64,000 nucleotides of DNA from Thermoleophilia bacterium (lineage in GTDB: Bacteria > Actinomycetota > Thermoleophilia > Miltoncostaeales > Miltoncostaeaceae): positions 1 to 64,000 of the forward strand of contig JAGQUM010000005.1 in NCBI GenBank assembly GCA_020438485.1, given 5' to 3'. This document shows, one piece after another, positions 3,507 through 6,206 of the stretch. How positions within the stretch are numbered: the stretch's first letter is position 1; the number at the start of each line of letters is the position of its first letter. The translations under genes were made by a program, and so were the position numbers. The notes under the pieces are model-generated. The model worked only from the letters and a program-made list of their open reading frames with translations, was not told the DNA's origin and ran no database searches.

Positions 3507-3998
3507 CTACTTCGCCTCCGCGGCCGGGGCGGCGGGGGCGGGCCGCGCGGGGACCTCCTGGCCGGTGCTGCGCACCCCCTGCCCCGCGGGCGGCGTCGGC
3601 GCGCTGGCCATGGGCGCGGCGGCCCGATCCATCGCGTCGATGCGGCGGCGCGCCTGGAACGTCTGCGACGCCTCCTTGAGGCCGGCGGCCAGCCCGGACA
3701 GCTTGCGTACCGGGGTGGCGACCGCGTTCGAGACCGTCACCATGGTCTGCTCGGCACCCTTGGCCCCGTGGACCGCCGACACCATGATCTCGTCGACGCG
3801 GTCCATCTCGCGGTTAACGCCGTCCATCGTGGTCTGGCCCTTGTTGAGGATCGGGACGACCTCGTCGGTGACCCGCACCATGGTGACGCTGAGGCGCGAG
3901 AACACCCCGGCCATGCGCACGAACAGGTAGGCCAGCGCCAGCCCGGTGATCACCAGGAAGAACGCGAGCGCCGCCTTCAGGACCTCAGACCAATCCAC
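3507..3998 (-). CDS. DUF948-type single-pass membrane protein
   Basis: A 163-residue protein with one N-terminal membrane helix (about residues 9-28, LAFFLVITGLALAYLFVRM), then a heptad-like, coiled-coil-prone stretch (LSVTMVRVTDEVVPILNK... DRVDEIMVSAVHGAKGAEQTMVTVSNAV) and a disordered Ala/Pro-rich tail. This is the layout of the DUF948 (YtxG-like) family, whose function is not established. The start overlaps the 3' end of mnmA by 14 bases, which supports one operon mnmA, DUF948, small protein, alaS, ruvX. Confidence 0.8.
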   Translation of the reverse strand: MDWSEVLKAALAFFLVITGLALAYLFVRMAGVFSRLSVTMVRVTDEVVPILNKGQTTMDGVNREMDRVDEIMVSAVHGAKGAEQTMVTVSNAVATPVRKLSGLAAGLKEASQTFQARRRIDAMDRAAAPMASAPTPPAGQGVRSTGQEVPARPAPAAPAAEAK

Positions 3999-5478
3999 AA
4001 GTCACCTCGCTGGGGGAATGCGATGCCGCGATCGTACCTGCCGCGACGAGACGATCACCCTGGTACACCGCCGCCGTCTGCCCCGGGGCGACGCCCAGGG
4101 CGTCCTCGGCCAGTTCGACCAGGGCCCGCCCGCCGTCGAGCGGCACCAGTGCGCGCCCGGCCAGGGGGGCGCCGCGGTAGCGTACCCGCACCTCGAACGG
4201 GGCGTCGGCTGCGATGGGCGCGTGGGACACGGCGTCGACCAGCTCCAGTGCGCCCACCGCGAGGTGCTCGCGCGGGCCCACGGTCACCGAGTTGGTGCCG
4301 GCGTCGGTGGCCAGCACGTACAGCGGGTCGGGTGCGGCCACGCCGATGCCCTTGCGCTGGCCCACCGTGAACCGCCAGTAGCCGTCGTGCTCGCCGACGC
4401 GGGCGCCGCCGGCGTCGAGGATGGGGCCGCGCCGCGCGGCCAGTCCCGCGTTGCGCTCGAGGAACGGCACATAGCCGCCCTCCCCCACGAAGCACACCTC
4501 CTGGCTCTCCACGGCGTCCGCCGCGGGTAGCGCCGCCGCGTGCGCCCGCGCCCGCACGTCGGGCTTGCGCATGTCGCCCAGCGGGAACACCAGGCGCGCG
4601 ACGGTGGCCCGGTCGAGCATCGCCAGCATGTAGCTCTGATCCTTGCCGGCGTCGCGGGCACGCGCCACGGCCGGGACGCCGTCGCGGCGCTCCACGCGGG
4701 CGTAGTGGCCCGTGGCCAGCCCGCGGGCGCCCAGGAGGGCCGCCGCATCGGCCAGCAGACGGAACCGCACACGCCCGTTGCACGCCACACACGGGTTGGG
4801 CGTGCGTCCCCGCGCGTAGCCGTCGATGAAGTCCTCCACCACGCCGCGCCGGAACTCGTCGGCAGCGTCGATGCTGACGTGCGGGATACCCAGGGCGTGG
4901 GCCGTCTCGCGGGCCATGCGGACGGTCTCGGGCGAGCAGCACGACCGCTCGGCGGCGGCGGCCCCGGGATCGTGCCACAGGCGCATGGTGACGCCCACCA
5001 CGTCGAGCCCGCGGTCGCGGAGTTCCATGGCCGCCACAGCCGAGTCGACGCCGCCGGACATGGCGACGGCCACGCGGCGGCCGTCCAGCGGCAGCCCGCG
5101 GGATCCCAGGCGCGCGCTGTACCAGGCCTCGAACGCCCGGGCGACGGCGTCGGCCACGAGATCCGCGCCGTGGCGCCGGGCGGGCCCCAGCCCGCCCAGC
5201 CCGGCGTCCAGGGCGCCGGCCGACAGCGACAGGCCCTCGCGGAGCGTGGCGCCCTCCAGGCGCCGGCAGGCCAGGCTGGCCGCGGCCGTCGCGGCGGGGC
5301 AGCCGTACGCCAGGAACCGGGCGCGGCGGACCCTTCCGCCCCGCACGTGGAGCTGGATGCGGACCGTGTCGCCGCACCCCACGGACCCGGACTCGCCCAC
5401 GGCGTCGGCGCCGTCCAGCGGCCCGGCCCCGAAGGGCCGGCGCAACTCGTCCATGACCTGGCGGGTGTACGCGCTCAC
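3985..5478 (-). CDS. mnmA: tRNA 2-thiouridylase MnmA fused to an N-terminal IscU/NifU-like scaffold domain
   Basis: MnmA thiolates U34 of Lys, Glu and Gln tRNAs. At 497 residues this protein is about 130 longer than a usual MnmA. Residues 1-125 resemble an IscU/NifU_N scaffold: the YTRQVMDELRRP start, GCGD with C35 and D37, and AYGCPAATAAAS with C60. The LGPARRHGADLVADAVARAF helix matches the IscU LPPVxxHCSxLAxDAI segment, but the third ligand cysteine is a glycine (G104). MnmA proper begins near residue 134, with the PP-loop SGGVDS (141-146), PNPCVACN (C230 and C233), GKDQSYML, C329 in SQEVCFVG, and GQRKGIGV. The CxxC-plus-C arrangement is the type reported to carry an iron-sulfur cluster. 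The product is presumably cytoplasmic. The fusion is plain from the sequence; cluster hand-over is inference. Confidence 0.95.
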   Translation of the reverse strand: MSAYTRQVMDELRRPFGAGPLDGADAVGESGSVGCGDTVRIQLHVRGGRVRRARFLAYGCPAATAAASLACRRLEGATLREGLSLSAGALDAGLGGLGPARRHGADLVADAVARAFEAWYSARLGSRGLPLDGRRVAVAMSGGVDSAVAAMELRDRGLDVVGVTMRLWHDPGAAAAERSCCSPETVRMARETAHALGIPHVSIDAADEFRRGVVEDFIDGYARGRTPNPCVACNGRVRFRLLADAAALLGARGLATGHYARVERRDGVPAVARARDAGKDQSYMLAMLDRATVARLVFPLGDMRKPDVRARAHAAALPAADAVESQEVCFVGEGGYVPFLERNAGLAARRGPILDAGGARVGEHDGYWRFTVGQRKGIGVAAPDPLYVLATDAGTNSVTVGPREHLAVGALELVDAVSHAPIAADAPFEVRVRYRGAPLAGRALVPLDGGRALVELAEDALGVAPGQTAAVYQGDRLVAAGTIAASHSPSEVTCGLV

Positions 5479-5522
5479 CCGCCCAGGTTAAGGCACCCGC
5501 CCCCGTCGGGGGCGCGCCGGGG

Positions 5523-6206
5523 TCAGCCGCGGGGTCCGGAGTCCTTGGCCGTGGCGATGGACTGGGCCAGCATGTCCACGTCCACCAGGCCCGTCCACAC
5601 GTTGACGACGCGCGCGTCGCGGCCGATCACGATGACGCACGGCGTCTCCGTGATGCCGAGCCGGGCGGGCAGGTCGCCGAACCCGGTCTTGCGACTGACG
5701 TCGTAGACGAAGTAGTCCACGCCCCGCCCCGTGCTGCTGCGGCGCGCCGCGCGGATCGCCGCGCGCACGACCTTCTCGTCGGCGGTATCGCCGTAGAGGA
5801 ACCCGATGACCACCGGCCTCCCGGACGCCAGCGCCGCCTTCACGGGCTTGGGCGTCCTGGGCCCGGCCGTGACCTCGTCGCCCTGCGTCACCGGGACGGA
5901 CGCGGCCGCGGACGCCACCGCGGCGACCGTCGGGGTCGGTCCCGCCGAGGCTGACGCGGACGGGTCGACGCCGGCGGCGCCGCCACCGCAGCCCGCGAGC
6001 GCGAACCCCAGCCCGGCCGTGGCCAGCGCCATGGCGCCGCGACGGCGACCGTTACCGAGAAGGAGGCCCCACCGTGCCGCTCCGGATTTGGCTCTGAACC
6101 TGCCGAAGCAGGGGGGCTGCGGGCGGGCCGCGCTCGTCGAGCGGGGTCCTGACGCCGCATCCCATTGTGTACGTGTTGGCTCAGGCGACATGCCGGTGGC
6201 AAACAC
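5523..6206 (-). CDS. Thioredoxin-fold lipoprotein-like protein without a CxxC motif
   Basis: The C-terminal 110 residues look like a thioredoxin fold: a strand RPVVIGFLYG, helix, a strand DYFVYDVSR, then LGITETPCVIVIGRDARVV with the cis-proline Thr-Pro, and a closing helix. No CxxC pair is present; the only cysteine in this part is in TETPC. A signal-like stretch ends in the lipobox LAGC, which suggests an exported lipoprotein. The start is uncertain. GTG 6206 has a good ribosome site (GGAGG, 8 bases away) but puts 59 residues before the hydrophobic stretch. ATG 6032 gives a short signal without positive charges. A redox role is doubtful without CxxC. Confidence 0.7.
   Translation of the reverse strand: MFATGMSPEPTRTQWDAASGPRSTSAARPQPPCFGRFRAKSGAARWGLLLGNGRRRGAMALATAGLGFALAGCGGGAAGVDPSASASAGPTPTVAAVASAAASVPVTQGDEVTAGPRTPKPVKAALASGRPVVIGFLYGDTADEKVVRAAIRAARRSSTGRGVDYFVYDVSRKTGFGDLPARLGITETPCVIVIGRDARVVNVWTGLVDVDMLAQSIATAKDSGPRG

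What the first reader, a model, noticed from the sequence alone, without database searches (positions are those of the whole stretch)
3985..5478. IscU/NifU-like scaffold fused to a CxxC-type MnmA tRNA thiolase
Residues 1-125 align by eye with IscU (YTRQVMDELRRP, GCGD, YGCPAA, and LGPARRHGADLVADAV versus LPPVxxHCSxLAxDAI). They keep two of three ligand cysteines (C35, C60) and D37, while the third is a glycine (G104). The MnmA half has C230-x-x-C233 plus C329, the arrangement tied to an iron-sulfur cluster in some MnmA proteins. A scaffold lacking one ligand, tethered to a cluster-dependent thiolase, could use a cysteine of MnmA as the missing ligand and pass the cluster in cis. I know of no description of that mechanism.
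Basis: partly seen in the sequence, partly recalled or inferred. Interest (0 to 1): 0.8.

Follow-up and report, generated by a model that had tools for sequence, protein, structure and literature searches.

The report
IscU-like domain fused to tRNA thiolase
This bacterial gene joins a relative of the iron-sulfur scaffold IscU to MnmA, the enzyme that adds sulfur to tRNA; the fusion is shared by a whole bacterial class and, in most of its families, keeps the metal-binding residues of IscU but has lost the one cysteine that normally accepts sulfur, so it is probably a built-in sulfur- or metal-delivery arm of MnmA rather than an ordinary scaffold.

Summary
Confirmed: window 3985-5478 (-) encodes one 497-aa protein, NifU_N (3-119) plus a complete C-type MnmA (135-483), the genome's only MnmA. 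AlphaFold gives one confident model (pTM 0.92) whose N-terminal part matches IscU. The fusion is class-wide (Thermoleophilia) and recurs in other families of the phylum.

The missing third cysteine is real (Gly104), but the inference drawn from it does not follow. His103 is kept beside C35, D37 and C60; in mouse ISCU exactly these four bind Zn or Fe(II), while C104 is only the persulfide acceptor. Among 65 class fusions with C35/D37/C60, 57 keep His103 without Cys104, 8 keep Cys104 without His103, none has both or neither. MnmA need not supply a ligand, and its half has no conserved fusion-specific cysteine. Cys104 is also absent from unfused mnmA-linked NifUs beside an IscS, so its loss does not depend on fusion.

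Three lineages (f6, f3, f15) lost the site but kept the domain or a remnant. Best reading: an MnmA-dedicated docking and sulfur-relay (or metal) module. Cis cluster transfer remains possible but unshown. New variant of known parts.

The parts
3985..5478 (-). nifU-mnmA fusion gene, 497 aa, GTG start, TGA stop
   Evidence: only MnmA in the genome
5122..5472 (-). NifU_N / IscU-type domain, residues 3-119
   Evidence: Pfam PF01592; structural match to A. fulgidus IscU 4eb5_C, rmsd 1.4 over 117 columns
5374..5376 (-). Cys35, first ligand
   Evidence: invariant in the fusions of alignment A2
5368..5370 (-). Asp37
   Evidence: all f1 fusions read in frame
5299..5301 (-). Cys60, second ligand
   Evidence: all f1 fusions read in frame
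5170..5172 (-). His103, overlooked fourth ligand
   Evidence: kept in 57 of 65 intact-site class fusions, exactly those without Cys104; ligand in mouse ISCU
5167..5169 (-). Gly104, in place of the persulfide-acceptor Cys
   Evidence: Gly (one Ala) in f1; Ala/Gly/Val in f5, f7, f10, f11; Cys in f8, f9 and part of f4
5086..5112 (-). linker, residues 123-131
   Evidence: between helix 102-122 and strand 132-139 of the AlphaFold model
4483..5076 (-). MnmA ATP-pyrophosphatase (PP-loop) domain, residues 135-332
   Evidence: Pfam PF03054
4936..4941 (-). Cys180-Cys181, CC of the C-type motif
   Evidence: invariant in alignment A2
4780..4791 (-). C230-x-x-C233
   Evidence: invariant in A2 and in unfused MnmAs of the class
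4492..4494 (-). Cys329, equivalent of E. coli Cys199
   Evidence: invariant
4276..4443 (-). MnmA PRC-barrel domain, residues 346-401
   Evidence: Pfam PF20259
4030..4206 (-). MnmA C-terminal beta-barrel, residues 425-483
   Evidence: Pfam PF20258
5485..5490 (-). TAACCT, -10-like box six bases before the start codon; suggests a leaderless mRNA
   Evidence: sequence; TAnnnT near the same place in most f1 orthologs

Best explanation
A MnmA that carries its own IscU/NifU-type domain. The domain most likely descends from the nifU gene of an iscS-nifU-mnmA operon and became fused to a C-type MnmA in deep Actinomycetota (shown: architecture, distribution, and operon intermediates in living relatives; inferred: order of events). 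In the window's branch it keeps the four metal ligands C35, D37, C60 and H103 and has lost only the canonical persulfide acceptor, Cys104 (shown by alignment; ligand roles taken from mouse ISCU). Inferred mechanism: the domain binds one Zn or Fe(II) ion and serves as docking site and sulfur relay for a cysteine desulfurase. Because Cys104 is missing, sulfur would pass through Cys35, as in the zinc sulfurtransferase SufU, or straight from the desulfurase to MnmA, where it is used in cis for s2U34. Cluster insertion into the MnmA C-type site is a secondary possibility. The stated confidence is for the relay/docking role; the architecture and the presence of the C-D-C-H residue set are close to certain.
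For: Fold and domains. Class-wide fusion, also in f22 and f15 of the phylum. Reciprocal retention: 57 H-only, 8 C-only, 0 both, 0 neither among 65 class fusions with C35/D37/C60, while 63 of 67 free NifU/IscU-type proteins sampled have all five residues. Of the 20 class fusions without that triad, 19 have neither H103 nor C104, which suggests the residues form one site. C35/D37/C61/H103, not C104, bind Zn and Fe(II) in mouse ISCU; C104 is the persulfide receptor (PMC6687725). SufU of M. tuberculosis accepts sulfur on Cys40, which precedes the Gly-Asp of the same C-G-D motif as Cys35, after a SufS histidine replaces Cys40 on zinc (PMC10216065); the window genome's SufS carries a similar HPHD segment. 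Families f7 (16 of 16), f10 (2 of 2) and f5 (5 of 6) show no full-length group-I IscS, yet keep the C-D-C-H set. Intermediates: f2 and f28 have separate iscS, canonical nifU and mnmA genes; f22 has both split and fused forms after iscS. Constraint on the NifU half is close to that on the MnmA half (pN/pS 0.54 against 0.43).
Against: No metal content, sulfur transfer or desulfurase binding was measured. The domain lacks the longer spacing before the third Cys that SufU has (44 residues here), so SufS docking is an analogy. Families f6, f15 and f3 keep the domain, or a remnant, without an intact site, so part of its role may be structural. The reciprocal His/Cys pattern rests on few independent changes (three for His103, four for Cys104 on the tree), and the independent-pairs tests had too few pairs to reach significance. 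The partner desulfurase of the window's organism is unknown.
Confidence: 0.5

Rival explanations
1. Iron-sulfur assembly and transfer in cis: a cluster is built on C35/C60 with H103 or D37, or a MnmA cysteine, as remaining ligands and passed to the CxxC-C site of MnmA.
For: C-type MnmA of Thermus thermophilus has a [4Fe-4S] cluster and is active only under anaerobic conditions (PMC8584467); the full CC-CxxC-C set is present; the C/D/C/H set also binds Fe(II) in mouse ISCU.
Against: The persulfide acceptor of scaffold chemistry is absent; IscU-type residues are decayed in f6, f3 and f15 while MnmA's cysteines stay; no fusion-specific MnmA cysteine; Cys104 loss also occurs in unfused NifU. Whether MnmA needs a cluster at all is disputed for E. 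coli (PMC11784392).
Confidence: 0.25
2. Structural or tRNA-handling appendage: the IscU-type domain is kept for stability, oligomerisation or tRNA binding, and the cysteines are leftovers.
For: f6, f15 and f3 keep the domain, or a 60-aa remnant of it, with most or all ligands lost; two f4 genomes (L051, L052) have no N-terminal domain on MnmA.
Against: In f1, f5, f7, f10, f11 and f22 the C-D-C-H set is complete across deep divergence, and in f8, f9 and part of f4 Cys104 takes His103's place, which a passive appendage does not require.
Confidence: 0.2
3. Regulatory metal or redox sensor: metal or oxidation state of the domain switches MnmA on or off.
For: The residue set is suited to Zn or Fe(II); a cluster-based oxygen switch on MnmA has been suggested for E. 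coli.
Against: No direct evidence; decay of the site in several lineages would mean repeated loss of regulation.
Confidence: 0.05

Closest known systems
IscU / NifU N-terminal scaffold (TIGR03419, TIGR01999, mouse and human ISCU)
   Same: Fold, C-G-D motif, second Cys, conserved His, spacing to the third-ligand position
   Different: Third Cys (persulfide acceptor) replaced by Gly; LPPVK-type motif degraded to LGPARRH; fused to MnmA; NifU models score below their equivalog cut-offs
SufU zinc-dependent sulfurtransferase
   Same: Related fold; first Cys, Asp and second Cys; possible use of the first Cys as sulfur acceptor
   Different: SufU keeps its third Cys and has longer spacing before it; the genome has its own separate SufU beside SufS
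C-type MnmA (CC-CxxC-C; Thermus thermophilus)
   Same: All motif cysteines, full domain set, scores above NCBIfam cut-offs
   Different: About 125-aa N-terminal IscU-type domain
Clostridial and Actinomycetota iscS-nifU-mnmA operons
   Same: Same genes side by side, presumed source of the fusion
   Different: Separate proteins, with canonical NifU except in f22
YrvO-MnmA of Bacillus subtilis
   Same: Gram-positive route to s2U without Tus proteins (PMC5372745)
   Different: Desulfurase acts directly on MnmA with no IscU-type domain

Membership tests
MnmA, C type | MnmA equivalog score above cut-off | tested here: met
   NF001138 352 bits, cut-off 284; TIGR00420 288, cut-off 237
MnmA, C type | PP-loop SGGVDS and CC-CxxC-C cysteines | tested here: met
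MnmA, C type | [4Fe-4S] cluster required for activity | not testable with these tools
   shown for T. thermophilus in the literature
IscU/NifU scaffold | IscU fold | tested here: met
IscU/NifU scaffold | three ligand cysteines | tested here: not met
   C35 and C60 present, position 104 Gly
IscU/NifU scaffold | Asp and His of the assembly site | tested here: met
   D37 and H103 present
IscU/NifU scaffold | LPPVK-type motif before the His-Cys | tested here: not met
   LGPARRH in the window
IscU/NifU scaffold | cluster assembly fed by a desulfurase | not testable with these tools
   needs biochemistry
SufU | third Cys and longer spacing before it | tested here: not met
   44 residues from C60 to G104; third Cys absent
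SufU | first Cys, Asp and second Cys of the zinc site | tested here: met
   C35, D37, C60
SufU | zinc-dependent sulfur transfer from SufS | not testable with these tools
   needs biochemistry

The most novel reading that the evidence does not exclude
A previously undescribed route to 2-thiouridine: an IscU-type domain without a persulfide acceptor, kept as a metal-only docking site and tethered to MnmA, captures the persulfide-bearing cysteine of a desulfurase (in the window's family perhaps an IscS-like protein that has lost its PLP lysine but kept its cysteine loop) and hands sulfur to MnmA in cis.
Probability: 0.25. Interest if true: 0.8.

Novelty: new variant of a known kind. Interest (0 to 1): 0.6.

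Why it matters
How sulfur reaches MnmA, and whether MnmA needs an iron-sulfur cluster, is openly disputed (PMC11784392). A natural IscU-MnmA fusion shared by a whole bacterial class, with lineages that kept the metal ligands but lost the persulfide acceptor, lineages that kept the acceptor but lost the histidine, and lineages that lost both, is a ready-made set for separating metal binding, persulfide transfer and docking.

Tried and rejected
1) Fusion as an assembly or frame artefact: rejected, conserved in one frame in many genomes. 2) MnmA cysteine as recruited third ligand: no fusion-specific conserved cysteine in the MnmA half, and His103 makes it unnecessary. 3) Fusion confined to one class: it looked so, but the phylum sample and fetched loci showed it in f22 and f15 too. 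4) 'Cys104 is lost when IscS is lost': it fitted the class (all 8 Cys104 keepers have IscS, nearly all H-only genomes do not), but f22 refutes it, having IscS next door with Ala/Gly104. 5) Two-state correlation tests on the tree: direction consistent, too few independent pairs. 6) Ligand distances in the predicted structure: not obtainable, no coordinates are released. 8) Literature: searches for MnmA or trmU with IscU, NifU or fusion terms found no description of this fusion; the library holds open-access papers only, so absence there is weak evidence.

Full report
Observation. The window encodes on its minus strand (5478 to 3985) a 497-aa protein. Residues 3-119 match Pfam NifU_N with E 2e-19; residues 135-483 are a complete MnmA. 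Foldseek matches the C-terminal part to MnmA (2hma, 2det) and the N-terminal part to IscU, best A. fulgidus 4eb5_C, rmsd 1.4; the sequence search against PDB chains agrees and aligns H103-G104 with His-Cys of IscU.

Context. The genome has one MnmA. Its other NifU-family protein is a SufU beside SufS. Downstream lie a DUF948-like gene overlapping the fusion by 14 bases, a short gene, alaS, and an ORF resembling ruvX (the ruvX name is from the sequence alone). No desulfurase gene was found next to the fusion.

Distribution. Of 61 related genomes 59 have a match, most as a single frame; a class survey found matches in 222 of 229 genomes. The class is Thermoleophilia: contig LNEQ01000097 (Actinobacteria bacterium Ga0077541) has the length of the f1 contig G019:C97, JAUJNZ010000001 (Thermoleophilaceae bacterium) that of G228:C19, and further fused loci bear the name Solirubrobacterales. 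In a sample of 149 genomes of the phylum the fusion also occurs in family f22 (nine of the twelve fetched; three are split into nifU and mnmA) and in f15. In Clostridia and others nifU and mnmA are mostly neighbours, not fused. Families f2 and f28 have separate iscS, canonical nifU and mnmA. This series (separate operon, split dedicated NifU, fusion) supports origin from the operon; the order of events is inferred.

The active site. In f1 every fusion that could be read in frame has C35, D37, C60 and H103, with Gly at 104 (Ala in one). Across the class, among 65 fusions with C35/D37/C60, 57 have His103 without Cys104 (f1, f5, f7, f10, f11), 8 have Cys104 without His103 (f4 in part, f8, f9), none has both and none has neither. 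Of the 20 fusions lacking that triad, 19 have neither residue. Free NifU/IscU-type proteins sampled have all five residues in 63 of 67 cases; three of the four exceptions are the split f22 NifUs between iscS and mnmA, which have Ala104, and the fourth has Lys in place of the His, as SufU does. On the MnmA tree His103 changes three times and Cys104 four times, so the pattern is strong in counts but rests on few events, and the independent-pairs tests were not significant.

Meaning of the site. In mouse ISCU, Zn and Fe(II) are bound by C35, D37, C61 and H103 but not C104; C104 receives the persulfide (PMC6687725). The window protein has therefore kept a whole metal site and lost the acceptor. 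This removes the need for a ligand from MnmA. C230, C233 and C329 are as conserved in unfused MnmAs of the class. In SufU of M. tuberculosis the first cysteine accepts sulfur once a SufS histidine takes its place on zinc (PMC10216065); the window genome's SufS has an HPHD segment before its catalytic loop. A relay through Cys35 is thus plausible; it is not shown.

Decay series. f6 keeps Cys35 but not D37 (Ala or Val) or C60 (Ser or Ala); four f15 proteins have partly or wholly lost the set; f3 carries a 60-aa remnant, recognised by profile comparison with the fused domains (probability 97, E 2.6e-11). Two f4 genomes have MnmA without the domain. The domain's chemistry is therefore dispensable in some lineages.

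Desulfurases. Full-length group-I IscS occurs in the f2, f4, f6, f8 and f9 genomes tested (in G044 as two contig-edge pieces), is absent from all 16 f7 and both f10 genomes, from 5 of 6 f5 (G143 excepted) and nearly all f11 and f3 (a fragment in G230, one copy in G100). In f8, f9 and f22 it is directly upstream of the fusion or of the split pair. f1 genomes instead carry an IscS-like protein in which the PLP lysine motif (S-G/A-H-K) is replaced in every copy that covers it, while the Cys loop persists in nearly all. Within the class Cys104 retention goes with IscS, but f22 breaks this rule.

Verdict. I rate a docking and sulfur-relay role at about one half, cis cluster transfer at a quarter, and a structural role at a fifth. 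All mechanism steps are inference.

Noticed in passing
G000:C20:1655-2806 (L203 about 1640-2809); orthologs among L205-L228: IscS-like protein conserved across the window's family that lacks the PLP-binding lysine in every copy covering it (SGHK replaced by GGPA, GGPS, GGRT and the like) but keeps the persulfide-cysteine loop (PGSxC..GK) in nearly all.
   Followed up: partly
5485-5490 and orthologous starts in f1 loci: A TAnnnT box ends about six bases before the start codon in most f1 orthologs, as expected for leaderless transcription.
   Followed up: partly
L040-L043, L198-L200, L088, L090: Family f3 carries a cysteine-free remnant of about 60 aa of the NifU domain in front of MnmA.
   Followed up: yes
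5523-6206 (-): Upstream ORF looks by eye like a secreted thioredoxin-like protein (lipoprotein-type signal, TPC motif); no Pfam match.
   Followed up: no
3507-3998 (-): DUF948-like gene overlaps the end of the fusion gene by 14 bases, suggesting coupled translation.
   Followed up: no
Cys71, window 5266-5268 (-): Cysteine conserved in all f1 fusions read in frame and in both f9 proteins, sporadic elsewhere, absent from canonical NifU; a possible alternative acceptor.
   Followed up: partly
L074, L201 (G000:C87): A csd-type desulfurase is followed by a rhodanese-like ORF, another possible sulfur source.
   Followed up: no
G143:C103 (L281): The only f5 genome tested with a full-length group-I IscS; near a contig edge, may be contamination or an exception.
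   Followed up: no
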